NCBI GenBank assembly: GCA_017412605.1
Contig: JAFPWY010000011.1
Location: 186,001-250,000, forward strand
Length of the DNA: 64,000 nucleotides
Direction: 5' to 3'
Source of the DNA: Fibrobacter sp.
GTDB lineage: Bacteria > Fibrobacterota > Fibrobacteria > Fibrobacterales > Fibrobacteraceae
A program made the translations under genes and the position numbers. This document shows, in pieces, positions 3,379-37,775 of the stretch (the stretch's first letter is position 1; every line of letters starts with the position of its first letter). The notes beneath the pieces are model-generated. The model saw nothing but the letters and a program-made list of their open reading frames with translations. It was not told the DNA's origin and searched no databases.

Positions 3379-3383
3379 ATGGA

Positions 3384-3391
3384 GGAATATA
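3384..3391 (-). promoter_or_regulatory. TATATTCC box, 5 nt before start
   Basis: A minus-strand promoter-like box whose 3' end is 5 bases from the ATG at 3378, so the transcript would be nearly leaderless. Confidence 0.45.
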
Positions 3392-3435
3392 ATAAAGATT
3401 TGGCCCCCAGGTACGTTTTTATTTACATTTAGGCT

Positions 3436-4569
3436 ATGCGGATTCCTTTTAACCAGCCGCCCTTCGTGGGGCCGGAAATCGATTATGTGCGTGCTGCCGT
3501 CGAGAGCGGCCGCATTTGTGGTGACGGGCAGTTCAACCAGAAGTGCCACGCCTGGCTCGAGGCCCGGACGGGTTGCGCCCGTGCGTTGCTCACCACGAGC
3601 TGTACGCATGCGCTCGAGATGTCGGCACTGCTCTGTGGCATTGAACCCGGCGACGAAGTCATCATGCCGTCGTTCACGTTCGTCTCTACGGCCGATGCGT
3701 TTGCGATGCGCGGTGCCAAGTGCGTTTTCGTGGACATCCGCCCCGACACGATGAACATCGACGAGAAGCTTATCGAGGCTGCCATTACCGAAAAGACCCG
3801 TGTCATTGTGCCGGTACACTATGCGGGCGTGGCCTGCGAGATGGATACCATCAACGCGATTGCCAAGAAACATAATTTATTTGTAATCGAGGACTCCGCG
3901 CAGGGCATGATGTCCACCTACAAGGGGAGAAGCCTCGGTGCGCTCGGGGACTTTGGCTGTTACAGCTTCCACGAGACCAAGAACTACAGCATGGGGGAGG
4001 GCGGCGCCATCCTCATTGCCGACAAGAAGTACGCCGACCATGCCGAGATTATCCGCGAGAAGGGCACGAACCGCGTGCAGTTCCACAGAGGCGAAGTCGA
4101 CAAGTACACCTGGGTGGACCTGGGCTCGAGTTATTTGCCGAGCGAACTCAACGCTGCGTACCTTTACGCTGAACTCGAGAACGTACAGAAGATTTTTGAC
4201 AACCGCATGGCGAGCTGGAACGCTTACCGCGAAAACCTGCAGTGCCTCGCCGACGCGGGCGACTTGCAGCTGCCCTACATTCCTGCGGAATGCAGCCACA
4301 ACGCGCACATGTTCTACCTGAAGGTTGCTGACCTCAAGACACGTACCGCTCTTATTGCGCACCTTGTGAAAAACGGGATTCTTGCCGTGTTCCATTACGT
4401 CCCGCTGCACAGCGCCCCCGCGGGCAAACGCTTCGGCCGCTTCTTTGGCGAAGATGTGTACACCACCAAGGAAAGCGAACGCCTGCTGCGCCTGCCCATG
4501 TTCTACGGGCTCAAACCCGAAGATCTGGAATTCGTGTGCGGCAAGGTGAAGGAATTTTTTAGGGGCTAG
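3436..4569 (+). CDS. wecE: dTDP-4-amino-4,6-dideoxygalactose transaminase (WecE/RffA-like)
   Basis: A 377-residue PLP enzyme of the DegT/DnrJ/EryC1/StrS class. Visible signatures are the N-terminal IPFNQPPFVGPEIDYV, SFTFVSTADAFAMRGAKCVFVDI, the PLP-ring Asp in IEDSAQG (D153) and the Schiff-base Lys in FHETKNYSMGEGG (K182). WecE converts dTDP-4-keto-6-deoxyglucose to the 4-amino sugar used in surface polysaccharides, with glutamate as amino donor. Length matches E. coli WecE (376). It is followed after one base by the ATP-grasp gene, which suggests one pathway in which the amino sugar is further decorated. Substrate specificity is inferred from similarity only. Confidence 0.88.
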   Translation: MRIPFNQPPFVGPEIDYVRAAVESGRICGDGQFNQKCHAWLEARTGCARALLTTSCTHALEMSALLCGIEPGDEVIMPSFTFVSTADAFAMRGAKCVFVDIRPDTMNIDEKLIEAAITEKTRVIVPVHYAGVACEMDTINAIAKKHNLFVIEDSAQGMMSTYKGRSLGALGDFGCYSFHETKNYSMGEGGAILIADKKYADHAEIIREKGTNRVQFHRGEVDKYTWVDLGSSYLPSELNAAYLYAELENVQKIFDNRMASWNAYRENLQCLADAGDLQLPYIPAECSHNAHMFYLKVADLKTRTALIAHLVKNGILAVFHYVPLHSAPAGKRFGRFFGEDVYTTKESERLLRLPMFYGLKPEDLEFVCGKVKEFFRG

Positions 4570-4570
4570 G

Positions 4571-5767
4571 ATGTCAAATAGGAAACTGCTCCTCCTCGGT
4601 GGTAGCCATGCCGAAATCCCGCTGATCAAGGCCGCACAGGCGTTGGGCTGGTTCGTGATTACCACGGGCAACAATCGGGACGGCCTCGGGCACCCTTATG
4701 CCGATAAGACGGTGTTTGCGGACTTTAGCGACAAGGATGCGATGCTGGAACTGGCGCGGGCCGAGGGCGTCACGGCGGTGTGTTCCGGATGCAACGACTT
4801 TGCCCTGCTTTCGACGGTGTATGTCTGCGAAAGGCTAGGGTTGCCGGGCCACGACAGTTATGCGACGAGTCTCGAAATCCACCATAAAGACAAGTACCGT
4901 GCATTGGCTGCAAAGCTCGGCATCCCGACGCCGCGGGCGATGGTGGTGCGTAGCGCGCAGGAATTCGAAGCGGCTGTCGGCGGCCTCGTCTTCCCGATTA
5001 TCGTGAAACCGGTCGACCTCACGGGCGGCAAGGGTATCCACCGCGCGGCGAATGCCGACGAGGCCCGTGCGGCCTACCGCGACGCGGTGAGCCGCACACG
5101 CGAAGACCACGTGGTTGTCGAGGAATTCGTGCAGGGTACGAACCATGGATTCTCGGCCATGCTGGTGAAGGGCAAGGTGGCCTTCGCGTTCGCCGACAAC
5201 GAGCAGTATTATATCAACAAGTACATGGTGTCGGGCGCGAATACGCCGAGCACCACGTCCGCTTCGGGCCTTGCGAAGCTGCGCGACTACAGCGAGCGCA
5301 TTGCCCGCGAGCTCAACCTCGTCGACGGCATTCTGCACATCCAGTACATCGAGCGCGCGGACGGAACGCCCGTCATCATCGAGATTTGCCGTCGCCCTCC
5401 CGGCGACCTGTACATCAAATTTGTCCAGTATGCGACCGGTATTGATTACCCGAAGTTCATCGTGATGGCCGAGACGGGCATGGACATTGCTGCAATCCAG
5501 GATTTACCCACGCAGGGATTCTGGCTGCGCCACTGCGTCATGGCCGGGTCCGAAATCGCCGACGGCGCAACCGTTCGCGAAGTGACTTTCGCTCCCGAGA
5601 TCCAGGGGAACATCGTCGAGAAATTCCTGTGGTACAAGCCTGGCGATGTTATTACAGATAAACTCATATACAAGGCCGGAATCGTCTTCTTCAAGTTCGA
5701 CTCGCTCGAAGAAATGAACGACAAAACCGCCCGCATGACCGACCTCGTGAAGGTCGTCTCGACGTAA
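4571..5767 (+). CDS. ATP-grasp family ligase
   Basis: The 398-residue protein begins with a Rossmann-like preATP-grasp fold (KLLLLGGSHAEIPLIKAA). It then shows ATP-grasp features: FPIIVKPVDLTGGKGI as the glycine-rich phosphate loop, VVVEEFVQG, and the metal-binding end VIIEICRRPPGDLY. Enzymes of this type (PylC, BtrJ, carbamoyl-phosphate synthetase relatives) join a carboxylate to an amine using ATP. Because it starts one base after the sugar aminotransferase gene, a reasonable inference is that it acylates an amino sugar or builds an amino-acid decoration of the glycan. The true substrate cannot be read from the sequence. Confidence 0.8.
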   Translation: MSNRKLLLLGGSHAEIPLIKAAQALGWFVITTGNNRDGLGHPYADKTVFADFSDKDAMLELARAEGVTAVCSGCNDFALLSTVYVCERLGLPGHDSYATSLEIHHKDKYRALAAKLGIPTPRAMVVRSAQEFEAAVGGLVFPIIVKPVDLTGGKGIHRAANADEARAAYRDAVSRTREDHVVVEEFVQGTNHGFSAMLVKGKVAFAFADNEQYYINKYMVSGANTPSTTSASGLAKLRDYSERIARELNLVDGILHIQYIERADGTPVIIEICRRPPGDLYIKFVQYATGIDYPKFIVMAETGMDIAAIQDLPTQGFWLRHCVMAGSEIADGATVREVTFAPEIQGNIVEKFLWYKPGDVITDKLIYKAGIVFFKFDSLEEMNDKTARMTDLVKVVST

Positions 5768-5775
5768 CTCAAAAA

Positions 5776-5838
5776 GTTCCCTTCGGCAAGCTCAGGGAAC
5801 TTAGTTCTGCAAGCTCCCTGAGCCTGCCGAAGGGAGCT
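5776..5838. repeat. Inverted pair of a 26-bp dispersed repeat
   Basis: Two near-identical arms face each other. The left arm (5776-5801) contains cccttcggcaagctcaggg and the right arm (5812-5838) contains ccctgagcctgccgaaggg. Each arm is also palindromic at its ends (gttccc/gggaac and agctccct/agggagct). The pair can form a long hairpin but has no T run, so it does not look like a classic terminator. Confidence 0.75.
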
Positions 5839-5856
5839 TATTCAATGAACAAATAT

Positions 5857-5884
5857 GGATCCTAGCCTCTAGTCTCTATCCCCT
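5857..5884 (+). repeat. Dispersed repeat, copy 1 (ggatcctagcctctag type)
   Basis: ggatcctagcctctag followed by tctctatcccc. The first 16 bases recur exactly at 27123-27138, also in a short spacer just before a gene start. Confidence 0.65.
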
Positions 5885-5892
5885 TTTTAAGC

Positions 5893-5900
5893 TATATTCA
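5893..5900 (+). promoter_or_regulatory. TATATTCA box, 5 nt before start
   Basis: A promoter-like box ending 5 bases before the ATG at 5906; no Shine-Dalgarno sequence fits between them. Confidence 0.45.
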
Positions 5901-5905
5901 AAAAC

Positions 5906-7033
5906 ATGAAGAAGGAACCTTACCAGATAGCCTTTATCGGTGGCGGCATCAATTCGGCCATCGGCGAAGTCCACAAGGCCGCAAGCCAGATGGACGGGCA
6001 TTTTGAACTTGTGGCGGGCGCGTTCAGCACCCACGCCGAGACGAACCGGCAGACTGCCGAGGCCTGGGGAGTGGCCGCGGAACGCACCTACGCCAGTTAC
6101 AAAGAACTCCTTGAAGCCGAAAAGGGCAAGCTCGACGCCGTGGTGGTGCTTGCCCCGACAGACCTGCACAAGGATATCGTCATCGACGCGCTCAGGGCCG
6201 GTTTCCCCGTGATTTGCGAGAAGTCTCTTGCGACCAGCGTCGAGGAAGGCGAAGAAATCGCGAAAGTGGTCACCGAGACGAAGGGATTCTTCTGCACCAC
6301 CTACAACTACACCGGCTACCCGATGGTACGCGAACTCAAACAGTTCATTGCCGACGGCAAGCTGGGCAAGATCCAGCAGGTCCAGGTGGAAATGCCGCAG
6401 GAAGGCTTCATGCGCCTGGGTTCCCACAACGAGCCGCCCAAGCCGCAGGCTTGGCGCCTCAAGGATACCGTGATTCCCAAGATTTCCTTGGACCTCGGGA
6501 GCCACCTGCACAACATGATTTACTTTTTGACGGGCGAACGCCCGGAACGCATCGTCGCCGACCAGGCCACCTTCGGACTGTTCCCGCAAATTGTGGACAA
6601 CGTGGGCGCACTCGCTCAGTATACGAACAACATGCGCGCGCAGGTTTGGTTCAGCAAGACGGCGCTCGGCAACCGCAACGGGCTTCGCATCCGCGTGTAT
6701 GGCAGCGAGGGCAGCGCCGAATGGTTCCAGCTGGAACCCGAGACGCTCAAGACATGCGACTTGCGCGGCAACGTGAGCCTGCGCGACCGCACCGGCGACG
6801 TGAAGATTGCAAACCAGCAACGCTACAACCGCTTCAAGGCGGGACACCCCGCAGGCTTTATCGAGGCGTTCGCGAACTACTACAAGGACATCGCCGATTG
6901 TCTCGGGCAATACTTCGAGACCGGCAGCTTCAAGAGCCAGTATGTGTGCGGCATTCGCACTTCGCTCGAAGGGCTTTCCATGATGCAGGCCGCTGCGCGC
7001 TCCGCTCAGAGCAGCAAGTGGGAATCTGTGTAA
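5906..7033 (+). CDS. Gfo/Idh/MocA family NAD(P)-dependent sugar oxidoreductase
   Basis: The 375-residue protein has an N-terminal Rossmann fold (YQIAFIGGGINSAIGEVHKAA), VVVLAPTDLHKDIVIDAL, and the family Lys in PVICEKSLATS (the EKP-type motif, here EKS). The C-terminal alpha/beta domain carries SLDLGSHLHNMIYFLTGERP, with the conserved D and H of the active-site helix. Members oxidise or epimerise sugars, often UDP- or dTDP-sugars of surface glycans, which fits the preceding wecE/ATP-grasp genes; that link is inference. It has its own promoter-like box, so it may be a separate transcript. Confidence 0.85.
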   Translation: MKKEPYQIAFIGGGINSAIGEVHKAASQMDGHFELVAGAFSTHAETNRQTAEAWGVAAERTYASYKELLEAEKGKLDAVVVLAPTDLHKDIVIDALRAGFPVICEKSLATSVEEGEEIAKVVTETKGFFCTTYNYTGYPMVRELKQFIADGKLGKIQQVQVEMPQEGFMRLGSHNEPPKPQAWRLKDTVIPKISLDLGSHLHNMIYFLTGERPERIVADQATFGLFPQIVDNVGALAQYTNNMRAQVWFSKTALGNRNGLRIRVYGSEGSAEWFQLEPETLKTCDLRGNVSLRDRTGDVKIANQQRYNRFKAGHPAGFIEAFANYYKDIADCLGQYFETGSFKSQYVCGIRTSLEGLSMMQAAARSAQSSKWESV

Positions 7034-7071
7034 CGGGACTGCCTGTCCAAGTCCGATGCGAATAAAATTAC

Positions 7072-7079
7072 TATCTTTG
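7072..7079 (+). promoter_or_regulatory. TATCTTTG promoter box of the tRNA gene
   Basis: An exact TAnnTTTG match ending 5 bases before the first base of the tRNA. This spacing places the transcription start at or next to the mature tRNA end and calibrates the same spacing seen before many protein genes. Confidence 0.6.
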
Positions 7080-7084
7080 CCCCC

Positions 7085-7158
7085 GGAGCCTTAGCTCAAT
7101 CGGTTAGAGCGTCGGACTCATAACCCGTTGGTTCCCGGTTCAAGTCCGGGAGGCTCCA
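7085..7158 (+). tRNA. tRNA-Met-type, anticodon CAT
   Basis: A 74-base cloverleaf. The acceptor stem GGAGCCT/AGGCTCC pairs fully, the D stem is GCTC/GAGC, the anticodon loop is CTCATAA and the T arm is CCCGG-TTCAAGT-CCGGG. The discriminator base is A and CCA is not encoded. The first pair is G-C, so it is not an initiator (which has an unpaired position 1). The CAT anticodon fits elongator Met, or Ile if C34 is lysidinylated. The anticodon stem has only three central pairs, with T-T and A-C mismatches at its ends. Confidence 0.93.
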
Positions 7159-7162
7159 CGAC

Positions 7163-7190
7163 AAAGACCTCGACTCAGTCGAGGTCTTTT
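7163..7190 (+). terminator. Rho-independent terminator after the tRNA
   Basis: A 12-bp perfect stem (aaagacctcgac/gtcgaggtcttt) with loop tca, followed by T residues, directly behind the tRNA. Confidence 0.85.
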
Positions 7191-7216
7191 AGTTTATACA
7201 CTGTTTGTCGAAAAAA

Positions 7217-8644
7217 CTAGAGCCCGAGTTCGCCGAAGATGAGCAGGTACTTGCTGATCGTCTTGTCCCACTCGTAGTGGAATCCGCCGTAGGCGTTCAC
7301 GACGACCTTGTCCCAGTCGGCCGTATCGGTCTGGTACACGTTGAGGGCGTCCTTTACGCGGGGCAGCATCAGGTGCGGAGCGTTCGCGTCGTCGACGAGG
7401 AACGCGTTGGCTGCAGATGCCGTGTCGAAGGAGTAGTCGGTGAGCATGCTCGCGACACCGACGTTTCTGCCTGTTACGGGGATGCATCCGCAGGCGAGCG
7501 CCTTGAGCAAGATGGAGGTGGACGGTTCCCGCAGGTTCCCTGCGAATATAATGTCCGATGCGGCGAGGATGTTGCGCAGGTGCTCTACGTCGGAGAATGT
7601 CTCGTCGAATTCGATGACATGCAGCGATTTCGGGTCCTGCTTGGCACAGTCGTTATAGTAGGTCCAGTCCGGGTGGTTCTGCGAGCAGCCCACGAGTACG
7701 AACACGTCTTCCTTGATGACGTCGGCGAGGATGGTCGCAAGCGTCTCGGACGTGTTGCCCGCTTCGATGTCGAGGTGCACGTACATGAGCATCTTGTTGC
7801 CGAAATCGGCCCCGCATTTTTCAGCAAGTTCCTGGCGCGCCTTGGCCTTGGCCGCCTTGATAGGAAGCTTTTCCTTGTTGAAATCCCAGAACACGTAGCT
7901 GACGCCGAACTGGATGCCGATGAGCTTGTTCGCATTGTGGCTCAGGAATCCGCTCAGGCCTCCGGAGAGGTTCGTGTAGAGCATGGCGTCGCGGTAGCCC
8001 GGCGACGGGAAGATGACCTTGTGGGCGTAGCAGATGCCCGCCTTGAGAAGGCTGACCTTTCCCCAGAACTCGTAGCCGTCCATGTTGTAATCCTTGCGCG
8101 GAAGCCCGATGTTCTCGATTTCGCTGGACGAAACGTGGAAGTCGTACGTTATGTTGTGGACAAAGAAGAAGAACGGGACGTCTTCAAAATCGTCTTGGTA
8201 GATAGTGCTTGCCAGGGGGCCGACAAGCGCACCGCCCCATTCGTGGCCGATGATTGCCATGCACTTGAAGCGCACGGCGCTTGCGTAGGCGAGGGCGGAC
8301 GATGCCAGGAAAGCGAACCTGAGGTGGTTGTCGCCATAGGGGATATCGTCGGGTGGCCCGTACACGTAGGGTCTGCCAAAAAATTCTTCGTTATATATGT
8401 ATGTATGGAGCGGATCTTCCTTGGAACGGAAGACTTCGAACGAACGTCCGTGGAGCCATTCCTTGCCCTTGAACACGCATTCGTAGTTTTCGGGATTCTT
8501 GATTTTTGCCTTGTAGAACGGGGAGATCGTCAGCACTCTTACGCCAGCGCGCGAAAACGCGTCGGCCATGCGGTTGACCGCCGTTGCGAGGGAACTTGGG
8601 GATGTCCAGTTCCCTGCTTCTGGGCTAATTACAAGAATATCCAT
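7217..8644 (-). CDS. Glycogen/starch synthase-like GT-B glycosyltransferase (divergent GT5)
   Basis: The 475-residue protein starts MDILVISPEAGNW and has the two-Rossmann GT-B layout. The N-terminal half includes FFFFVHNITYDFH (the GT5 FTIHNL-type site). The C-terminal half has MLMYVHLDIEAG, FDETFSDVEHLRNILAASDI and REPSTSILLKALACGCIPV, the EPxG/S nucleotide-sugar site. The GT5 ADP-glucose motif KTGGLGDV is not present; the equivalent segment reads NWTSPSSLATAVNRMA. It could be a GlgA paralogue with another donor. It converges on the tRNA terminator. Confidence 0.75.
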   Translation of the reverse strand: MDILVISPEAGNWTSPSSLATAVNRMADAFSRAGVRVLTISPFYKAKIKNPENYECVFKGKEWLHGRSFEVFRSKEDPLHTYIYNEEFFGRPYVYGPPDDIPYGDNHLRFAFLASSALAYASAVRFKCMAIIGHEWGGALVGPLASTIYQDDFEDVPFFFFVHNITYDFHVSSSEIENIGLPRKDYNMDGYEFWGKVSLLKAGICYAHKVIFPSPGYRDAMLYTNLSGGLSGFLSHNANKLIGIQFGVSYVFWDFNKEKLPIKAAKAKARQELAEKCGADFGNKMLMYVHLDIEAGNTSETLATILADVIKEDVFVLVGCSQNHPDWTYYNDCAKQDPKSLHVIEFDETFSDVEHLRNILAASDIIFAGNLREPSTSILLKALACGCIPVTGRNVGVASMLTDYSFDTASAANAFLVDDANAPHLMLPRVKDALNVYQTDTADWDKVVVNAYGGFHYEWDKTISKYLLIFGELGL

Positions 8645-8733
8645 ATCCCTATCCGGTATACAAACAAATGTTTACAAAACATAATAAAAATTTACCTATA
8701 AAATTTAATTAGAGTTACATTAATTAGTTATTT

Positions 8734-8741
8734 TATATTTT
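8734..8741 (+). promoter_or_regulatory. TATATTTT promoter-like box
   Basis: It lies in an AT-rich 160-base spacer, with a leader of about 64 bases to the ATG at 8806 that includes gaaaggaag as ribosome-binding site. Confidence 0.4.
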
Positions 8742-8805
8742 AAAGGGTCTTTTTTTACATATTTATGACTCTTTTCGTGAACTTTCTACCCCGAAAGGAA
8801 GACTT

Positions 8806-9864
8806 ATGAAGAAAATCTTTCTCGTAGCCCTGGCTTCTGCCGTTGCTTTCACAATGGTCGGCTGTAAGGGAACTAACGAAAAGCGCGGTGACGAACACCT
8901 CAAGGAAGGTCGTTTCCGCAATGCTATCAACTCTTACATCGAAGCGAAGAAGAAGGGCAACATGTCCAGCGAATTCTTCGACAACTTCACCCTTGCGTTG
9001 GTCCGTGCTGCCGATGTCGAGGCCAAGAAGGATATCAACAGCGACCTTCTGAGCGGCTATTTCGACAAGGCTTCCGACAACCTCCCGGAAGTCAAGAACC
9101 AGGAAGTTCTCCAGGAATTTGCAACGACGATGGCTAACATCGGTAAGCTCCAGGCCTCCCAGGATGGCGTGGACTACGGCACCATCGTGAACGCCTTCGC
9201 GAAGATCGACTCCGCCTTGGCCATTGCCAAGCGCAGCGGTGTCGCTACGTCTTCTATCCAGAGCATCCGTACCGAAGCCGAAAACAACTACGTCGCCCGC
9301 AATCTGAGCGAAGCTGTTGGTGAATCGGACCCGGTCGTTAGCGAATACCAGATCTTGAAGATTGCCGAAATGGCTCCGAACAACGAGAAGGTCAAGGCTG
9401 CCTTGAACACGAGCCGCAAGGGCACTCGTGGTTACTTCCTCATCTTCGGTGAACAGATCGGTGAACCGGTCAGCCGCCGCGTTGACAAGTGGGGCTACGT
9501 GATGGCCTTCCCGACCATCAAGATGACTCCGACCTCCCTCGCTGGCGAACTCCAGTTCTGGGCCTCTACGGGTAACAACACGGAACTTGATCCGGCTGGT
9601 CTCAAGCTCGTTTCTACGACGGGTGAAGAAGTCGGTGCCAAGGCTGGCAGCGGCTGGTGCGAAGCCGAAGTGCTCGTTGGCAAGAAGGGTGACGAAAAGA
9701 TCGAGAAGAAGAAACAGTCCATCAAGCCGGGCACCAAGGGCAAGCTCATGAACGAGTTCCAGTGCTCCTTGAACGTGACGTTCAACTTCAGCAAGGGCTT
9801 TGTTCCGGACTACGTCGAATACAAGGACGAATTCGGTATCGGCCGCAAGTACCTCGGTCAGTAA
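8806..9864 (+). CDS. Lipoprotein with helical-repeat (TPR-like) N-terminal half
   Basis: The 352-residue protein has a lipoprotein signal (LASAVAFTMVGC, Cys at 20). Residues 28-60 (RGDEHLKEGRFRNAINSYIEAKKKG) look like a TPR hairpin and helices continue to about 200. The second half, from RGYFLIFGEQIG, is beta-rich and of unknown type. Codons are strongly biased to GGT, GCT and AAG, unlike the GC-ending codons next door, so high expression is likely. AAAGGAAG sits upstream of the ATG and a strong terminator follows. The gene is a single unit; function is unknown, probably envelope assembly or structure. Confidence 0.75.
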   Translation: MKKIFLVALASAVAFTMVGCKGTNEKRGDEHLKEGRFRNAINSYIEAKKKGNMSSEFFDNFTLALVRAADVEAKKDINSDLLSGYFDKASDNLPEVKNQEVLQEFATTMANIGKLQASQDGVDYGTIVNAFAKIDSALAIAKRSGVATSSIQSIRTEAENNYVARNLSEAVGESDPVVSEYQILKIAEMAPNNEKVKAALNTSRKGTRGYFLIFGEQIGEPVSRRVDKWGYVMAFPTIKMTPTSLAGELQFWASTGNNTELDPAGLKLVSTTGEEVGAKAGSGWCEAEVLVGKKGDEKIEKKKQSIKPGTKGKLMNEFQCSLNVTFNFSKGFVPDYVEYKDEFGIGRKYLGQ

Positions 9865-9890
9865 TCTCCTGAACTACAGGTTTTACGAAG

Positions 9891-9917
9891 ACGCTCCGCG
9901 ATGGCGGAGCGTTTTTG
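9891..9917 (+). terminator. Rho-independent terminator
   Basis: Stem acgctccgc/gcggagcgt with loop gatg, followed by TTTT, behind the lipoprotein gene. Confidence 0.85.
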
Positions 9918-10076
9918 TATATGGCAAGATGCACCGGAATTCCGGGATTGGCCTTTTACGTTTTCTTGAATGGTTTCGGAATTTGTAAACCGGCAGGCGA
10001 GGTTGGAACTGCTGGGAACGGTTTTGCTTGATTAGTTTGGCTTGATTAGTTTTGCTTGGGATGCCCGGCGCCCGGG

Positions 10077-11189
10077 TTATAGCCGGATGATGGCGTCGGC
10101 AGTGAACGGCAGGTCTTCGACCTGCGGCGTCGCGATGATGACTTGGCACCCTTTGTCGCGGATGAGCGACGCCACGGCATCGCGCCTGTTCGTGTCGAGT
10201 TCGGCAAAAATGTCGTCGAGTAGCAGGATCGGCTTGCAGACGTAGCGCGATGCCACGTCCACTGCCGCGAAACGCATGGCGACTGCTGCCGAGCGGCATT
10301 GCCCTTGCGACCCGACAGAACGCATTTCGTAGCCGGAGATTTTCAGGGCGAGGTCGTCCTTGTGCGGCCCGGCCATGGTGAGCCCGTTGATCTTCTCGAC
10401 AACTTCTAGCCCCTGGAGCTTGCGGAGGTAGACCTCCTGTAGCGCGGCCTCGGACGCCTCCGCACCCGACTCCGCTGCACCTTCAAGCTCGCTCAATATG
10501 GAACTCTTGTAGGCGCAGGTAATCTCGTCGACCCCGCCGGAGAGCTTGCGGTAGTAGCTTGTAATGATGGGCGAAAGTTCATTCACGAGTTCCAGGCGCA
10601 CGGCCCAGAGTTTTGCTCCGAGTTCCGCGAGCTGCTGCGTGAGCACATGGAACACTTCTTCGCCACCCACGGCGCCTCCGCTTTCTCCCTTGTTCTGCTT
10701 GAGCCACTGGTTGCGCTGCTGCAGGATGCGCTTGTAACGCCGGAGCGTGGTGGCGTTGGCTGCAGAGCGGAAGCAGAGAATTTCGTCGAGCCAGCGCCTG
10801 CGCGTCTCGGGGGCGCCTTTCAACAGCTCGATGTCCGAGGGTTGCATGATGACGGCGGGACACTTGCCGAAGAACTGCGCGGCGGAGCGCAGGGGCTCGC
10901 CGTTTTCGCGGGCTTCGGTGCCGCGCATGTGTATGCGCACGCCCCTGTTGCAGCTGATGCCGTCGTTGTCGAACGTTCCGCGGACGATGGCTTCGTCTTG
11001 CTTCCAGGTGATGAGTTCCTTGAGCTCGTGGGCGCGGAAGGAAAATCCCTGGCTCAGCAGGTACACCGCCTCGAGCAGTGTCGTCTTGCCGCTCCCGTTT
11101 GCACCGCACACGACGCTGATGCCGGGCCCGAAATCGTAGGCGTTCCCGGCGAGGCTACGCATGTGGCTGATGTCGATTCCCGAAATCAA
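10077..11189 (-). CDS. recF: DNA replication and repair protein RecF
   Basis: A 370-residue ABC-type ATPase that helps load RecA at gaps. Visible are the N-terminal ISGIDISHMRSLAG, Walker A GANGSGKTTLLEA, QGFSFR, MQPSDIELLKGAPETRRRWLD, the signature region GSQGQCRSAAVAMRFA and Walker B ILLLDDIFAELD. The start is taken as TTG 11189-11187, because it places the family N-terminus correctly and overlaps the TGA of the upstream gene (TTGA). The frame stays open far upstream, but that part is not RecF-like. It is the last gene of an envelope-protein operon, away from dnaA, dnaN or gyrB, which is unusual. Confidence 0.9.
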   Translation of the reverse strand: MISGIDISHMRSLAGNAYDFGPGISVVCGANGSGKTTLLEAVYLLSQGFSFRAHELKELITWKQDEAIVRGTFDNDGISCNRGVRIHMRGTEARENGEPLRSAAQFFGKCPAVIMQPSDIELLKGAPETRRRWLDEILCFRSAANATTLRRYKRILQQRNQWLKQNKGESGGAVGGEEVFHVLTQQLAELGAKLWAVRLELVNELSPIITSYYRKLSGGVDEITCAYKSSILSELEGAAESGAEASEAALQEVYLRKLQGLEVVEKINGLTMAGPHKDDLALKISGYEMRSVGSQGQCRSAAVAMRFAAVDVASRYVCKPILLLDDIFAELDTNRRDAVASLIRDKGCQVIIATPQVEDLPFTADAIIRL

Positions 11190-12229
11190 GGGATGAAGCC
11201 CCGCAGGCCGAAACTGAGCGGATTCCAGAGCCCGGCCTCGCTTTCGTAGAGCAGGGCGTAGTTGACGTCGAACAGGTACTTCTTCTTTCCGATGCGCACG
11301 TTGAACTTGTAGCCGAGACCGAACGTGAAGTCGAGATCGTCCATACCGACTCGCACCGTGCCGCCTTCGATGATGTCGCATTCGAAGCCGACGCGGCCTG
11401 TCCACACGTGGAGCTGCGGGTCGAATGCAAGCAGTGTGTCGGCCACCTGGTAGTCGATGGCTTCCATCCAGGCGTAGACTGGCTTGCCCATGATGTGCGA
11501 GCGGTAGCCGAGTCCGATCTGCAGGATCTTGGGACGCACGCCTTCGGTGGAAGGCAGCGAGTTGTCTGTGCTTGTGTTCCTGTCCCACTTGGCGGAAAGG
11601 TTTTCGCTGAAGCTCAAGTTGCGGATGACGACGGAGGTCGACCACTTGTTGTTCCACTGGCGCAACCAGCCCAAGTTGATTGTGACCGGGCTGCGGTAGT
11701 CGTCGACGACTTCGTACCCTTCGATGTGCTCGGAAACGTCGAGGTTGTCGTAGCTCATGGAGAGCGAGAGACCGAAGGCGTCCTGTCGCGTGGCGCGGTA
11801 GGCGAAGCCGAGGTACATCATCGTGAAGTACGGTGTCGCTGTGCCCATGGTCTCGTCGTCTTCGTTGATGACGTCGAACGCGAGGTCGCCGCGGTAGAGC
11901 ATGGCAAAGCCGACGCCCATGCGGTTGCCGACCTTGGTCTCGATGCCGGCGTTACCGCCCATACGGTCGAGGTCGCGCTTGTCGGCGTTCAGCGTGTAGT
12001 TCGTGTTCTGGCGGAATCCGAGAATGCCCGGGTTCCAGTAGGCGCCCGGCATGGAGGCGGTGTCGGCGGAGCCGGTGTTGCCGCGGCCCATTTCGCGCGT
12101 GCCTGCGCCCATGCGCTCGACAAATCCGTCAAAACCGCCGAGAGCGGCCTTGCGTTCGATGGCGTACACCTGCGTTGCCGCGGCCAGCGCGAGAGCGATA
12201 GAAAGCGATGTCTTGAGAAGATGCTTCAT
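11186..12229 (-). CDS. PorV/PorQ-like outer-membrane beta-barrel protein
   Basis: The 347-residue protein has a signal peptide (MKHLLKTSLSIALALAAATQVYA). The mature N-terminus FVERMGAGTREMGRGNTGSADTASMPGAYWNPG matches the hallmark of the PorV/PorQ/UPF0164 family (GAR-MG-G, then YWNPAG). Alternating strands follow to the end. PorV is the outer-membrane attachment factor for type IX secretion cargo. Here it sits between a FlgD-like beta-propeller gene and recF, with 1-base spacing upstream. Whether it truly serves type IX secretion is inference. Confidence 0.75.
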   Translation of the reverse strand: MKHLLKTSLSIALALAAATQVYAIERKAALGGFDGFVERMGAGTREMGRGNTGSADTASMPGAYWNPGILGFRQNTNYTLNADKRDLDRMGGNAGIETKVGNRMGVGFAMLYRGDLAFDVINEDDETMGTATPYFTMMYLGFAYRATRQDAFGLSLSMSYDNLDVSEHIEGYEVVDDYRSPVTINLGWLRQWNNKWSTSVVIRNLSFSENLSAKWDRNTSTDNSLPSTEGVRPKILQIGLGYRSHIMGKPVYAWMEAIDYQVADTLLAFDPQLHVWTGRVGFECDIIEGGTVRVGMDDLDFTFGLGYKFNVRIGKKKYLFDVNYALLYESEAGLWNPLSFGLRGFIP

Positions 12230-12230
12230 G

Positions 12231-13832
12231 TTAGCGCCCTCCCATCGTCATGACTTTGCCCCAGCCGATATTGCCGTGGTTGTCCTTGACGCGTACGTAG
12301 TAGATGCCCATGGTGCAGGCGCGTCCGTGGTCGTCCTTGCCGTCCCAGTAGTCTTCCTTGGGGTAGGTGCTGCGGGAGTTGTCCGCCTCGCGGGGCGCAT
12401 CCTTGACGATGGTGCGCACTTTGCGCATATCGTAGCTGAACACTTCGATGGTAATCTTGGAAGACCTGCTTACTTTGTACGATACGAGGGACTGTGCGCC
12501 GACTTCGGTTATCACGGAGGGGACCATGCGGATGGTGCCGAGGTTGTCGCTCAGCCTGGCGCGGTTCAGTATCGGTGTCCAGGTGGCTCCCGAGTCTGCC
12601 GAGACGGAGATGCCGTTCCCGTAGGTGCTCACGGCGATGCCTGTAATGTTCTTGGTCAGCGGGAAGGTCGTGATGGAGGTGATGATTTCGTCGCGGTCGA
12701 TGACGCCCCTTTCAAAGCCGTTCAGCCACTGGCTTCCGTCGTCCTCGTCGGTTTCCCAGGCGCGCACGCCTGCGGAGTCGAGCAGCAGGTAGCCGCTTTC
12801 CTTGCCGCCGGTGGAAGTTACGGCGATGTATGCCTTGTCGCCGAGGAATGCCACGTCGGAGACGGTGTAGCTGGAGTTCGCGAAGATGTCCTTCTTCTGC
12901 ACCTTGCCGGTGGTATCCAGGAAGTTGACCTTCTTGAACTTTGTGCCGTCGGTGCTGCGCATGAGGCTGCCCTGCACGCCGTCCTTGCCCGGCTTCGAGA
13001 CTTCGGCGATAATCTGGAACGGCTTGCCGCCCATCCAGATGCCGGTTACGCGCTTCGAGGTGTCGAGCGCCTTGAGCGACTTGGCTTCCGAGCCGTCGTA
13101 TATCCACACGCCCTTTTCGCTGGCGATCCACAGGTCGCCCGATTTCGGGTTGATGGCGACGTCCAGGATGGAGGCGTTCTTCGACTTCTTGTACTTATAG
13201 AGTTTTCCCGTCGGGATCTTTTCCAGTTTGGATTCCGTCTTGTTCAGGATGTAGTCCGTAATTTCCGGATGGTTCGGTCCCTTCGAAATATCGTATTTCG
13301 TGATGCCGGCCGCTCCTCGGGCAATCCAGAGAATGCTGGATGTAGAGTCGTAGGCAAATCCGGTGCTCGCGTACATCATGGCGGAGTCGAGGTCCTCGGC
13401 GAATCCGGGTGGATCGAGAGGGGTTTCCAAGGCGCGCTCTGCGCTGCGTACGGAGAAGAATCCTGCGGGCTCCAGGAAGGAACCGTTCTTGTCCGTGGTG
13501 TACATGGGGAGCACGAGCCCGAGTTCCCCGGCGGTCGCCGAAGGTGTCCGCCGGCGCTCTGCCCAGGAGTCCCTGAAGATTCCGTCGTGTACGGCGGTCA
13601 TGGAATCGCCGACGGATACTTGCTCCGACTTGTCGGCGGTGACGCCGTGAGCCGTGGACTTGAGTGTAATTTCGGTGACTCCGCTAACCACGTCGCCGCG
13701 CGAGAACACGTACAGCTTGCCTGTCTTGGTACCGGGCGCAACCTTGAATGTCCAGTTGCTGAACAGGGTCTCGGCCGCGAGTCCCTGTGATACCGCGACG
13801 GCGAGCAGTATGCCGCATTTGATAAAGTTCAT
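12231..13832 (-). CDS. Exported beta-propeller-like protein with C-terminal FlgD/Ig-like domain
   Basis: A 533-residue protein with a signal peptide (FIKCGILLAVAVSQGLAAE). The middle has repeated propeller-blade motifs such as ILWIARGAAGITKYD, GDLWIASEKGVWIYDGSEA and ITGIAVSTYGNGISVSADSG, like WD or two-component-regulator-type propellers. The last 90 residues (ITIEVFSYDMRKVRTIV then WDGKDDHGRACTMGIYYVRV) are a FlgD-type Ig domain, common at the end of FCB-group exported proteins. It sits 3 bases from lolA and 1 base from the PorV-like gene, so it belongs to one envelope operon. Confidence 0.72.
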   Translation of the reverse strand: MNFIKCGILLAVAVSQGLAAETLFSNWTFKVAPGTKTGKLYVFSRGDVVSGVTEITLKSTAHGVTADKSEQVSVGDSMTAVHDGIFRDSWAERRRTPSATAGELGLVLPMYTTDKNGSFLEPAGFFSVRSAERALETPLDPPGFAEDLDSAMMYASTGFAYDSTSSILWIARGAAGITKYDISKGPNHPEITDYILNKTESKLEKIPTGKLYKYKKSKNASILDVAINPKSGDLWIASEKGVWIYDGSEAKSLKALDTSKRVTGIWMGGKPFQIIAEVSKPGKDGVQGSLMRSTDGTKFKKVNFLDTTGKVQKKDIFANSSYTVSDVAFLGDKAYIAVTSTGGKESGYLLLDSAGVRAWETDEDDGSQWLNGFERGVIDRDEIITSITTFPLTKNITGIAVSTYGNGISVSADSGATWTPILNRARLSDNLGTIRMVPSVITEVGAQSLVSYKVSRSSKITIEVFSYDMRKVRTIVKDAPREADNSRSTYPKEDYWDGKDDHGRACTMGIYYVRVKDNHGNIGWGKVMTMGGR

Positions 13833-29403: not shown

Positions 29404-30447
29404 ATGGAACACAGGCTTTCTGATTACAATTTTGAATTTCCGCCAGAACTGATTGCAACCCGTACGGCGGGCAAGGGCAAAACGCGCATTTTGCACTGCC
29501 CCAAGGATGGCGGCGAGCGCCATATAATGAAGGCTCCGGAAATTGTGGATCTGTTCAGGCCGGGCGATTGCCTGGTGGTGAACAATACCAAGGTGATTCC
29601 CGCGAGGCTGTACGGTCACACGTTGCATGGTGGCGAGGTCGAAACGCTTTTGGTGCAGTCGCTGATTCCCGCCGAAGACGGCTCCGCCCGCTACGAGGCG
29701 CAGGTGCGCCCGGGCAAGGCTTTCAAAATCGGCCGCGAACTCGAAATCGCGGGTGTGAAGACGGTCGTCGAAGACGTCCGTGAAGACGGGGCCCGCGTGC
29801 TGCGCTTTGCGGTGACTCCGGTGGAACTCGAGTCGGTGATGAACCGTGAAGGACACGTCCCGCTGCCGCCGTACATCAACCGCCCCGACGACGAAGACGA
29901 CAAGAAGGCTTACCAGACGATTTTCGCGAAGTATTCCGGCGCGGTGGCCGCCCCGACGGCGAGCTTGCACTTTAGCGAGCAAATGCTCGAAGACCTCAAG
30001 GCAAGGGGCGTGTACGTGGCCGAAGTGACTCTGCACGTGGGCCCCGGCACCTTCCAGAACATCTCGGTCGAAGATTTTACCCAGCACAAGATGCACGGCG
30101 AACATTACGAGCTCACGCCCGAAAATGCCGACATCATCAACAAGGCGAAGCGCGAAGGCGGCCGCATCGTGACGGTCGGGACGACGAGTACTCGCGTTAT
30201 CGAGACGATTGCCGACGCAAACGGATTCCTGAAACCGCAAAAGGGCGTGACGCACGCGTTCTTCTATCCCGGCTACCGCTACAAGATTGTGGACGGGCTC
30301 CTCACCAATTTCCATTGGCCCAAGAGCTCGCTTATCTTGCTCGTGTCCGCATTCTACGGACGCGAAAACACGCTGGCCGCGTACAAGATGGCCGTCGAGA
30401 ACAAGCTGAAGCTGTTCAGCTACGGCGACGGAATGCTGATATTGTAA
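29404..30447 (+). CDS. queA: S-adenosylmethionine:tRNA ribosyltransferase-isomerase
   Basis: The 347-residue enzyme makes epoxyqueuosine at the wobble base of tRNAs. Family marks are LSDYNFEFPPELIATRTAGKG (start), GDCLVVNNTKVIPARLYG, PLPPYINRP, YAAPTASLHF-type (VAAPTASLHFSEQML), EVTLHVGPGTFQ and VGTTSTRVIET. Length matches the family (about 350). It lies one base after the WYL regulator. It ends next to a short islet with a direct repeat (30453). Confidence 0.95.
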   Translation: MEHRLSDYNFEFPPELIATRTAGKGKTRILHCPKDGGERHIMKAPEIVDLFRPGDCLVVNNTKVIPARLYGHTLHGGEVETLLVQSLIPAEDGSARYEAQVRPGKAFKIGRELEIAGVKTVVEDVREDGARVLRFAVTPVELESVMNREGHVPLPPYINRPDDEDDKKAYQTIFAKYSGAVAAPTASLHFSEQMLEDLKARGVYVAEVTLHVGPGTFQNISVEDFTQHKMHGEHYELTPENADIINKAKREGGRIVTVGTTSTRVIETIADANGFLKPQKGVTHAFFYPGYRYKIVDGLLTNFHWPKSSLILLVSAFYGRENTLAAYKMAVENKLKLFSYGDGMLIL

Positions 30448-30452
30448 CTGGG

Positions 30453-30474
30453 GTTAGTTGTTCCCGCCCTGGTC
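30453..30474 (-). repeat. Direct repeat copy 1: duplicated gene tail
   Basis: Shares 19 of its bases with 31282-31300 (TTAGTT-CCCGCCCTGGTCG, here with an extra GTT). Read on the minus strand it codes the last residues DQGGNN-stop, matching the DQGGN-stop tail of the gene at 31282-31779. Confidence 0.7.
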
Positions 30475-30494
30475 GACATAATAGTAGACCAGGG
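30467..30494. repeat. 8-bp perfect inverted repeat at islet edge
   Basis: ccctggtc and gaccaggg are separated by 12 AT-rich bases. The left arm is part of the duplicated gene tail. No T run follows. Confidence 0.6.
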
Positions 30495-30503
30495 TGTGAC
30501 TTG

Positions 30504-31121
30504 TCATCTCCTGCTATCCTTTTCGTAGCAGAATTCTTTTTCGGTCATGGGCAATGTGGTAACGCAATACCCCTCGAAGCAGCCCATTCGTTTTGACATG
30601 TCAGAAGAGTGAAGAGTGACATCTATAGGGTTCTCGTCATAGCTAAACCATTTGGTTGTATCTTGTTCGGGAACGATGTTAATGCGTGTCCTGCCCGTAG
30701 TGATTAAACCTGTTTTTATATGTGTTGTTGTGTCATTGGAAAAAATTTGTATTCCCAATTCGTTAGAATTAGGTTTAACATCATCAAAGGGTGTAATCCC
30801 GCATAAAAAAACATTCCATATGGGGTATGATTCGGAAACAACGCAATGATCGGAAATCTTTTGTGATGTTGGTTGAATATAGACGGGGGCTCGTTTTGTC
30901 GAATCGTTGCACAAGATAATTTTTTGGCTTGCGTTGGTTTGCCCTTGGCAAACATATTGTTCGTTTAAGTAAAATTGGACACTATCAATATTAGCTGTGG
31001 TAATGAGTCTTATTGATAAAAAATCATCAGAATCAAAGCATTCTGTTTCTGATGGATCCTCATAAGGGGCGCATCCTAAAAGAACAATGAATAAAGAAAA
31101 ATAAATAAAGCGGGAAAACAT
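30504..31121 (-). CDS. Small lipoprotein of an AT-rich islet
   Basis: The 205-residue protein has a lipoprotein signal (FIYFSLFIVLLGC, Cys 17). The mature part holds at least seven more Cys residues (CFDSDD, YVCQGQ, LCNDST, HCVV, LCGI, MGCFEGYC), so disulphides are likely. Base composition is clearly AT-richer than queA or the minus-strand genes on its right, which suggests recent arrival. It lies inside a segment bounded by a duplicated gene tail. No family is recognised. Confidence 0.65.
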   Translation of the reverse strand: MFSRFIYFSLFIVLLGCAPYEDPSETECFDSDDFLSIRLITTANIDSVQFYLNEQYVCQGQTNASQKIILCNDSTKRAPVYIQPTSQKISDHCVVSESYPIWNVFLCGITPFDDVKPNSNELGIQIFSNDTTTHIKTGLITTGRTRINIVPEQDTTKWFSYDENPIDVTLHSSDMSKRMGCFEGYCVTTLPMTEKEFCYEKDSRR

Positions 31122-31132
31122 AGATTGCCGTC

Positions 31133-31279
31133 CTAGAAAACAACAGAATACCGTGAAGGTTCGTGGTTGTCAATAGAACCATAGAAATTTTTTCCGGCCT
31201 GTCCAACAACGACTTCTGTATTCGGTGCTACAATCGTTCCCGCAAAGTCGGTTTGCGCATGAATCCCGTCCGCATTCGG
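31133..31279 (-). pseudogene. 3' fragment of a surface-protein gene
   Basis: On the minus strand a 48-codon frame ending in TAG codes a polished protein end: NADGIHAQTDFAGTIVAPN, then TEVVVGQAGKNFYGSID. It has no start codon of its own and begins just behind the stop of the gene at 31282. The text resembles the end of choice-of-anchor A type surface proteins (APN-VVGQAGK-FYGSI); this is recalled similarity, not a search. It looks like a leftover tail of a longer gene. Confidence 0.45.
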
Positions 31280-31281
31280 GA

Positions 31282-31300
31282 TTAGTTCCCGCCCTGGTCG
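31282..31300 (-). repeat. Direct repeat copy 2: native gene tail
   Basis: This is the 3' end of the gene 31282-31779 (codons for DQGGN-stop). It is the partner of 30453-30474 and marks the right boundary of the AT-rich islet. Confidence 0.7.
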
Positions 31301-31779
31301 CCGCCTTCGGCTTCCAGCGTCGGGATGTTCTTTTCTTCGTTGCAGAGGTTTTCTTCGCGGATCTTGAACGTGAAGTCCACGAGGTTGTTCTCAAACATCT
31401 TCTGGTATGGCTTCTTCATCTGCACGCCTTCGAGGGCGCAGGTACAGTAGTTCACGCGCTGCACGAGCTTGGAACCATTGCCGGGAGTTCCCTTGGCAAA
31501 GACGCATTCGTGCATGATGGCGTATTCGAGGGCTCGGTCGTAGCGGAACTTGCACTTGTTCTTCGCGTCGGGGAGGGCGGCCACTTTCTCGATGATGCCT
31601 TCGTTCGGGACGCTGTTCATGAAACTGCAAGTCATGAAGCCAAGGATGTAAATAAACAGGGCTACTGCGCCAACGATAATCAAACGCTTCGAACGGGGCA
31701 ACTTGCTGAACTTGTTACCTAGTGCCGCGAACGTCTGCGTGGCGTGGAGCTTAACGTCGTCTGAATCATTCTGTGCCAT
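31282..31779 (-). CDS. Single-span membrane protein of unknown function
   Basis: ATG 31779 gives 165 residues; a TTG further up would run into the promoter box. The N-terminal 30 residues are cytoplasmic, then a membrane helix (RLIIVGAVALFIYILGFMTCSFM). The outer part has Cys residues in KCKFRY, HECVFAK, NYCTCALEG and NLCNEEK that could pair. It lies 14 bases after hpt on the same strand, third in a unit with a GH57 gene. Its last codons are duplicated at 30453. No family recognised. Confidence 0.6.
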   Translation of the reverse strand: MAQNDSDDVKLHATQTFAALGNKFSKLPRSKRLIIVGAVALFIYILGFMTCSFMNSVPNEGIIEKVAALPDAKNKCKFRYDRALEYAIMHECVFAKGTPGNGSKLVQRVNYCTCALEGVQMKKPYQKMFENNLVDFTFKIREENLCNEEKNIPTLEAEGGDQGGN

Positions 31780-36673: not shown

Positions 36674-36713
36674 CCTGTTCTCCATAATTATAAATTACCC
36701 CGCCTCAAAATAA

Positions 36714-36737
36714 ATAAAAACCCGTAAAAACGGGTTT
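36714..36737 (-). terminator. Terminator of the aldose-epimerase gene
   Basis: Stem aaacccg/cgggttt with loop taaaa. On the minus strand it is followed by TTTTATTT. Confidence 0.65.
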
Positions 36738-36806
36738 GCATTCGCTTGCGGCTGTGGACATTTATCTTTGAAAATGTCCACGGCTTTTCTTGAAAAAAAG
36801 GAGTTT

Positions 36807-37775
36807 TTACTTCTTTTTGAATGTCGCGCCAAAACGGAACGTGCGCTGTTCGCCTGCCGGGATGACGATAAGTCCACGGTGATGGTTCAGGGCGTCGGGC
36901 TCGGCGGTCATGGGCTCGATGGCGATGCTGTCGCGTGTGGGCGGGGTGTAAATCTGGATGGCGTTGTACTGCCCGTCGCCTGCATTCTGCCAAATATCGA
37001 GAGTGCCTATAGAACCTTCGAGAACGGCTCGCGCACACTGCGGAATGGGGGCTTCCAGGCAGAAACAGTCGTTGATAAAGTCTGCCCCGATTTTGCGACC
37101 GCTGGTAAAGCGCGTGTCGTCGAGGAGGTTCCCGGTCGGAATGTCGGCCTGGTCGAGCTCGCTCCGTTTTGTCGGGGGGAGAGTCATGACGAGGTTGTCA
37201 ATCTTTTCGCCGAGCATAAAGTACGGGTGCCAACCTTCGGAATAGGGCATGTCCGTTTTCCCGAGGTTTTCGACCGTCGATTCCACGGTAAAGGTTTCGC
37301 CTGTGAAAATTATTTTGTTCGTGGCACGGAATGGGAAGGGAAATCCGGTAAAGGCTCCTGCCCAGTCGCAAGTGAATTCGGCGATACATTTTTCGCTGTC
37401 GGCCTCAAAACTCTTGAAAGCCCACTCTGCATTCTGCAAGAATCCGTGGAGTGCGTGCGGAGCCCAACTTACGTTGTTTACAAGCTGGTAGTCTTTCCCT
37501 TGCCAGTTGAACTTTGCATAGGCAACGCGGCCCGGGAACGGGGCGAGGCGGCAACCGGCGTTTGTGTCCGGACCCATTTTGTAGATGTCATCGCCCGGCC
37601 GGTAACCGAACAGAAGTTCGGCGGCTTGGCTGTCGGTCTTTTTAAGAGGAACGCGCCAGGCGTTGAGGCCTGCACCGTAGCCCGAAAGGATTTCAAATTC
37701 AGCGCCGTCGTCGCGCTGGAGGACGAAACACTGCACCGTGCCAATCGGCCGGGAAATAATCGAAAAACTTCTCAT
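36807..37775 (-). CDS. Aldose 1-epimerase (galactose mutarotase) family
   Basis: The 322-residue cytoplasmic protein has GalM-type marks: GAEFEILSGYGAGLNAWRVP, NAGCRLAPFPGRVAYAKFNWQGKDYQL, HALHGFLQNAEW (catalytic His) and YSEGWHPYF-ML. A Glu near the C-terminus (IAIEPMTAEPDALN) fits the catalytic base. It interconverts alpha and beta anomers of hexoses before further metabolism. ATG 37775 is chosen because a TATCTTGA box is 5 bases upstream. It probably supports sugar use downstream of the neighbouring secreted glycanase. Confidence 0.88.
   Translation of the reverse strand: MRSFSIISRPIGTVQCFVLQRDDGAEFEILSGYGAGLNAWRVPLKKTDSQAAELLFGYRPGDDIYKMGPDTNAGCRLAPFPGRVAYAKFNWQGKDYQLVNNVSWAPHALHGFLQNAEWAFKSFEADSEKCIAEFTCDWAGAFTGFPFPFRATNKIIFTGETFTVESTVENLGKTDMPYSEGWHPYFMLGEKIDNLVMTLPPTKRSELDQADIPTGNLLDDTRFTSGRKIGADFINDCFCLEAPIPQCARAVLEGSIGTLDIWQNAGDGQYNAIQIYTPPTRDSIAIEPMTAEPDALNHHRGLIVIPAGEQRTFRFGATFKKK

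What the first reader, a model, noticed from the sequence alone, without database searches (positions are those of the whole stretch)
30453..31300. AT-rich islet bounded by a duplicated gene tail
The last codons of the gene at 31282-31779 (DQGGN-stop) occur again at 30453-30474, 830 bases away, in the same orientation. Between the copies lie an AT-rich Cys-rich lipoprotein gene and a start-less 3' gene fragment. The outer copy carries an 8-bp inverted repeat. This looks like a cassette inserted at a gene end that restored the tail, or a duplication followed by replacement.
Basis: partly seen in the sequence, partly recalled or inferred. Interest (0 to 1): 0.62.

Follow-up and report, generated by a model that had tools for sequence, protein, structure and literature searches.

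The report
Inserted adhesin-tail and lipoprotein cassette
A small foreign-looking cassette, the cut-off end of a large surface adhesin gene plus its lipoprotein partner gene, was dropped between two housekeeping genes of a Fibrobacter genome, and the repeated gene tail beside it is most likely a scar of that recombination.

Summary
A 16-bp word of the gene tail (DQGGN-stop) occurs exactly twice in the 3.53-Mb genome, around an 809-bp islet that holds the lowest-GC 800-bp stretch of the window. Close relatives settle insertion: of seven genomes, four have an empty site (6 bp between the two stop codons) and three, the window's included, are filled with one, one and two units. The 'gene fragment' is the 3' end of a ~1,100-1,200-aa adhesin-like gene, which elsewhere in the genus sits directly in front of the same lipoprotein family. 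Cut-off adhesin 3' ends followed by a secreted partner gene recur: 25 of 28 distinct fragments examined, against 22 of 147 control genes. Tandem units share 97-98% identical tip and signal-peptide DNA, then diverge abruptly. The layout resembles orphan CDI/Rhs modules, but no toxin domain was found and tip and partner do not covary, so it is not filed there. The doubled tail is not intrinsic to the insertion: the other two filled genomes lack it. It is best read as the recipient's own tail, kept when a filled allele recombined into an empty one. What the lipoprotein does is unproven.

The parts
29404..30447 (+). queA (Queuosine_synth), left host flank, convergent
   Evidence: Pfam PF02547 E 3.6e-112
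30454..30475 (-). outer tail copy, DQGGNN-stop; identical 16-bp word at 30460-30475; same context as the tail in empty-site genomes G067/G063
30467..30494 (.). 8-bp inverted repeat CCCTGGTC/GACCAGGG, loop 12; one arm in the tail copy, one in the adhesin-like remnant; no T-run
30478..30501 (-). remnant of the start of a next adhesin-tip unit (..SHTLVYYY..), joined to the tail copy
   Evidence: window islet 761-865 is 81% identical to the G012 unit-1/unit-2 junction; sequences side by side; VYYYG motif of full adhesins
30504..31121 (-). Cys-rich lipoprotein (partner) gene, 205 aa
   Evidence: predicted beta-rich fold, pLDDT 82.8
31133..31282 (-). start-less adhesin 3' fragment (tip), 49 codons plus stop; internally deleted relative to the G087 copy
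31282..31300 (-). inner tail copy, DQGGN-stop, the present end of the host gene
31282..31779 (-). host gene: 165-aa protein, no Pfam family; present in 78 of 80 genus genomes

Best explanation
The islet is one orphan unit of a Fibrobacter two-gene surface system: the 3' end of a large adhesin-like gene plus the gene of its small secreted partner, here a Cys-rich lipoprotein. SHOWN: the site is empty in four and filled in three of seven closely related genomes (the window's included); the fragment is homologous to the C-terminus of ~1,100-1,200-aa adhesins directly followed by this lipoprotein family; units occur in tandem, with near-identical tip and signal-peptide DNA and diverged partner bodies. 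INFERRED: the conserved tip and signal-peptide DNA is the homology by which units are copied, exchanged and displaced. A filled allele (inner junction as in G087/G012, at least two units as in G012) recombined into a genome with an empty site. On the queA side the join fell inside the VYYY-coding part of the next unit and just before the recipient's own gene tail, so that tail stayed as the outer copy. The lipoprotein gene now lies downstream of, and in line with, a housekeeping gene and could be expressed by read-through; the tip fragment has no start codon and is probably not made. Its most likely role is that of a variable partner in a surface adhesin complex.
For: Empty sites G067, G063, G017, G046 with 6 bp between the two stop codons, against 834, 899 and 1,635 bp in G000, G087, G012. 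Adhesin plus abutting lipoprotein in G063 (two loci), G041, G071. Lipoprotein family in 27 of 80 genus genomes, patchy. Tip matches: 99 in 47 of 80 genomes. An ORF with a signal-peptide-like start within 120 nt follows 34 of 46 long or 5'-open adhesin ends and 27 of 30 fragments (25 of 28 without two places counted twice), control 22 of 147. Abrupt divergence after tip and signal peptide. G087 and G012 are filled but have one tail only; the window's outer tail has the CCCCAG spacer of empty G063/G067, and its first 300 bp of queA are 94.3-95.0% like G067/G063/G017 and 89.7-91.0% like G087/G012/G046.
Against: The gene side of the window is not clearly donor-like (last bin of that flank: 96.0% to G087, 93.8-95.0% to the other five), so the two-allele recombination is only moderately supported. 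An original duplication with later loss in the G087/G012 lineage is not excluded. At least G012 and G063 are metagenome assemblies. Tip similarity does not predict partner similarity (Spearman 0.07, Mantel p 0.16), so no tip-specific pairing is shown. The linked tip+partner model has pTM 0.50 with the adhesin tail disordered: no docking shown.
Confidence: 0.6

Rival explanations
1. Site-specific or transposition-like insertion that made a target duplication of about 16 bp; G087/G012 later lost the outer copy.
For: Exact 16-bp direct repeats flank the window islet, and joining the flanks at the repeat gives an empty-site-like sequence. All three filled genomes share the inner junction.
Against: Two of three filled genomes have no outer copy. 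The two copies differ by an AAC codon and in what follows the stop. The outer unit end is an adhesin remnant that in G012 continues into a second unit. No recombinase-size ORF lies in the 809 bp.
Confidence: 0.2
2. The filled state is ancestral and the empty sites are deletions between the repeats.
For: Recombination between the 16-bp repeats would give an empty-site-like sequence.
Against: G046, closest to the filled G087/G012 in both flanks, is empty with DQSGNN-stop; such a deletion needs two tail copies, which G087/G012 lack. The islet is AT-rich, and its units vary.
Confidence: 0.12
3. The lipoproteins are immunity-like proteins and the arrays are orphan or polyimmunity-type loci of an undescribed contact-dependent antagonism system whose carrier is the adhesin.
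For: Layout matches orphan CdiA-CT/CdiI and Rhs modules (PMC3150448, passages) and tandem polyimmunity loci (PMC3482391, passages): start-less 3' fragments with intact downstream genes, and an adhesin-free array of at least six lipoprotein genes in G044:C9.
Against: No toxin domain at the adhesin C-terminus; tip and partner do not covary; no PADLOC match at E 0.01.
Confidence: 0.2
4. Chance repeat beside an ordinary native lipoprotein gene.
For: A shared word of 16 bp is short.
Against: The word is found only twice in 3.5 Mb, both at this locus; empty sites exist.
Confidence: 0.01

Closest known systems
Orphan cdiA-CT/cdiI and rhs-CT/rhsI modules (PMC3150448, passages read)
   Same: Start-less 3' fragments of a large surface-protein gene, each with an intact small downstream gene, in tandem; conserved tag sequence followed by abrupt divergence.
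   Different: Here the repeated part is a conserved adhesive tip, not a toxin; the partner is exported (lipoprotein or signal peptide); the divergence starts inside the partner gene after its signal peptide; no tip-partner covariation.
Polyimmunity loci (PMC3482391, passages read)
   Same: Tandem, same-strand, closely spaced diverged paralogues (G044:C9 array).
   Different: The lipoproteins scanned match no Pfam or NCBIfam family at their cut-offs; function unknown.
pAdhesive_15 / DUF7305 ice-binding-like adhesive proteins (Pfam PF20597, PF23981)
   Same: Three of the four full-length adhesins scanned match one of the two above its cut-off.
   Different: The window holds only a 49-codon tip, below both cut-offs.

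Membership tests
CDI/Rhs-type polymorphic toxin, orphan module | 3' fragment lacking a start, with an intact downstream gene | tested here: met
   Window fragment has no start and the partner is intact; 25 of 28 distinct fragments are followed by a secreted ORF
CDI/Rhs-type polymorphic toxin, orphan module | Polymorphic C-terminal toxin domain on the carrier | tested here: not met
   Pfam on four full-length adhesins: the C-terminal matches are to pAdhesive_15/DUF7305; the tip is well conserved across them
CDI/Rhs-type polymorphic toxin, orphan module | Cognate tip-partner pairing | tested here: not met
   Spearman 0.07, Mantel p 0.16 over 34 loci; partner follows the mid-adhesin region instead (0.48)
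CDI/Rhs-type polymorphic toxin, orphan module | Downstream gene gives immunity | not testable with these tools
   needs co-culture assays
Insertion element or cassette with target duplication | Direct repeats flank every insertion | tested here: not met
   One of three filled genomes has both copies
Insertion element or cassette with target duplication | Recombinase or attachment site encoded nearby | tested here: inconclusive
   No recombinase-size ORF in the 809 bp; an integrase acting from elsewhere was not searched
pAdhesive_15/DUF7305 adhesin family | Domain match above the curated cut-off | tested here: not met
   Window fragment 15.5 bits against 23.8 and 13.3 against 27; full-length homologues L089, L090, L091 pass

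The most novel reading that the evidence does not exclude
Fibrobacter carries a genus-wide, combinatorial surface system: large adhesins paired with fast-diverging secreted partners, whose spare tip-plus-partner units are stored in tandem, shuffled by recombination through the conserved tip and signal-peptide DNA, and sometimes exported to unrelated loci such as this one, to vary adhesion or self/non-self recognition.
Probability: 0.35. Interest if true: 0.72.

Novelty: new variant of a known kind. Interest (0 to 1): 0.52.

Why it matters
If right, a fibre-degrading gut genus varies its surface by storing and swapping spare 3' units of adhesin operons, a layout so far described for toxin/immunity systems. 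It would make testable how Fibrobacter strains vary adhesion or tell kin from non-kin, and it would turn many start-less fragments with small secreted genes into one system. The scar shows how such a unit can land beside a housekeeping gene without destroying it.

Tried and rejected
Adhesin C-terminal tail docking into the lipoprotein: tip and partner were linked by reading one stop codon as Gly and folded. pTM 0.50, tail residues 172-188 under pLDDT 50: not supported. Known fold for the partner: Foldseek found nothing at E <= 0.001; VIA-align best Z 4.9, a tie that includes Mfa3 and a Bacteroides fragilis putative adhesion protein besides an unrelated transporter: too weak to use. PDB sequence profiles of A2 and A1: nothing meaningful. 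Linked model against PDB: nothing at E <= 0.001. PADLOC at E 0.01: no match. Tip-partner covariation: negative. Terminator role for the 8-bp inverted repeat: no T-run and no terminator-like hit there.

Paper searches: Fibrobacter with adhesin, lipoprotein and orphan gave 2 papers, neither on this by its title; Fibrobacter with polymorphic toxin gave 7, listing seen, one of them read in passages; a cassette/surface-protein/recombination search of which 10 of 69 were listed; a Fibrobacter fibro-slime/adhesion search of which 12 of 50 were listed, one read in passages (PMC4668043; 'lipoprotein' and 'ice-binding' not in its text). None showed this arrangement in title, start of abstract or the passages seen. 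This is no proof that it is not in print. A search on homology-facilitated recombination gave nothing used.

Limits: the survey used 68 loci: 60 stretches chosen from the 99 matches, plus eight fetched earlier; most weak matches were not fetched. Two fragment places were counted twice (L121 and L128 overlap); I give both counts. Some 'fragments' may be full genes broken by a stop. The signal-peptide test is a crude hydropathy rule, and the control ORFs are mechanical ORFs of at least 250 aa, not curated genes. In one search three loci without a long ORF met a stale result file; by the printed list I believe none of them entered the 34.

Full report
OBSERVATION. The tail repeat, the AT-rich lipoprotein gene, the start-less fragment and the 8-bp inverted repeat are all present at about the stated places. 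The exact repeat is 16 bp, 30460-30475 and 31285-31300, and the word occurs nowhere else in the 3,534,652-bp genome. The islet (30476-31284) has 40.0% GC; the window has 55.0%, and the lowest-GC 800-bp stretch starts at 30401.

INSERTION TEST. The host gene (31282-31779) is found in 78 of 80 genomes of the genus, and six besides the window's own have at least 96% identical copies. In G067, G063, G017 and G046 it ends in DQGGNN or DQSGNN and queA ends 6 bp beyond its stop; in G000 (the window), G087 and G012 the distance is 834, 899 and 1,635 bp. So there are empty and filled sites. The three filled sites share the inner junction: DQGGN-stop, then (A/T)CCCGAATGCG.

WHAT THE FRAGMENT IS. The 49-codon frame (31136-31282) matches the C-terminus of 1,095-1,207-aa proteins in G063, G041 and G071 at E 4e-13 to 6e-11. 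Three of four full-length homologues scanned match the ice-binding-like adhesive domains pAdhesive_15 or DUF7305 above their cut-offs, near the C-terminus. In G063 (two loci), G041 and G071 a lipoprotein gene starts within about 20 nt of the adhesin stop. Searches show that these lipoproteins and the window's belong to one diverged family, found in 27 of 80 genomes. The window fragment lacks a stretch that is present in the G087 copy, so it is a decayed tip.

UNITS. G012 carries two tip-plus-lipoprotein units in tandem at this site. G087 carries a second locus between gh5 and galM with a shortened adhesin end, a lipoprotein, a near-identical adhesin-end stub and a second lipoprotein. The full adhesin of G063:C1, a few genes away from its own empty site, is followed by a lipoprotein and another tip stub near the contig end. 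Pairwise profiles show 97-98% identity over tip and signal peptide and then an abrupt fall: G087 unit 1 against unit 2, and the window against G012 unit 2. G012 unit 1 against unit 2 does not show this (72% falling to 47-77%). G087 against G012 unit 2 has a 97-100% identical partner body but tips that differ by an indel. Thus tip and partner appear to be exchanged in pieces.

GENUS-WIDE. The tip profile gave 99 matches in 47 of 80 genomes. In 68 fetched loci I found 76 adhesin 3' ends. Of 46 long or 5'-open ones, 34 are followed within 120 nt by an ORF with a signal-peptide-like start. Of 30 fragments (under 400 aa with an upstream stop), 27 are; without two places counted twice, 25 of 28. The same rule applied to other ORFs of nearly the same loci gives 22 of 147. 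Many partners are not lipoproteins but have ordinary signal peptides.

THE DOUBLED TAIL. G087 and G012 have no outer tail copy; behind their lipoprotein gene the sequence runs into TTACAATATC, the queA end, by another junction. The window's outer copy reads DQGGNN-stop-CCCCAG-TTACAATATC, as in the empty G063 and G067. The first 300 bp of queA in the window are 94.3-95.0% like the empty genomes G067/G063/G017 and 89.7-91.0% like G087/G012/G046. Just inside the outer copy lies ..SHTLVYYYV, the text that in G012 opens unit 2 (..GHIMVYYYGTNKVF). The simplest reading is a filled allele recombined into an empty one, with a join inside the second unit that left the recipient's tail in place. On the other side the signal is weak: in the last alignment bin the window is 96.0% like G087 and 93.8-95.0% like the other five. 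A target duplication with later loss is not excluded. The 8-bp inverted repeat straddles this join, one arm in each partner of the fusion, and may be fortuitous (inference).

WHAT IT MAY DO. The lipoprotein is predicted as a beta-rich domain at pLDDT 82.8 with no PDB match at E <= 0.001. Layout suggests orphan CDI/Rhs modules (PMC3150448, passages) and, for the G044:C9 array, polyimmunity loci (PMC3482391, passages). Against membership: no toxin domain at the adhesin end, no tip-partner covariation (Spearman 0.07, Mantel p 0.16; the partner follows the mid-adhesin region at 0.48), and no docking in the linked model (pTM 0.50). I therefore favour an adhesive surface complex with variable partners and keep the antagonism reading as a rival.

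CAVEATS. At least G012 and G063 are metagenome-assembled genomes. Boundaries of the adhesin-like remnants are inferred from short matches. The inner junction's adhesin source allele was not found in the full-length genes compared. That the organism is Fibrobacter rests on the titles of records matching genomes of its genus (contig lengths equal to those of G063, G012 and G007) and is not printed for the window itself.

Noticed in passing
L093 (G044:C9:70000-86000) 6065-10515: Tandem same-strand array of at least six genes of the window's lipoprotein family with near-identical signal peptides and diverged bodies, without adhesin fragments between them.
   Followed up: partly
L128 (G087:C19:28000-47000) 11699-13493: Two tandem adhesin-tip plus lipoprotein units between gh5 and galM; the matching place in the window (around 36685-36810) has none. 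In G063 a full adhesin follows the GH57 gene instead.
   Followed up: partly
L092 (G007:C2:62000-72000) 2556-5279: Adhesin homologue with an internal papain-like Peptidase_C39_2 match (E 2.2e-5) and two tandem partner genes with the same signal peptide and near-identical C-terminus but different middles.
   Followed up: no
L187 (G052:C91:11500-17500) 1886-3374: Tandem adhesin-tip stubs, one split by a stop, with signal-peptide partner genes: another orphan array of a different partner class.
   Followed up: no
L192 (G000:C7:120000-129000) 4402-7740: The window's own genome holds a full-length adhesin (1,113 aa) of another class with a signal-peptide partner directly downstream.
   Followed up: no
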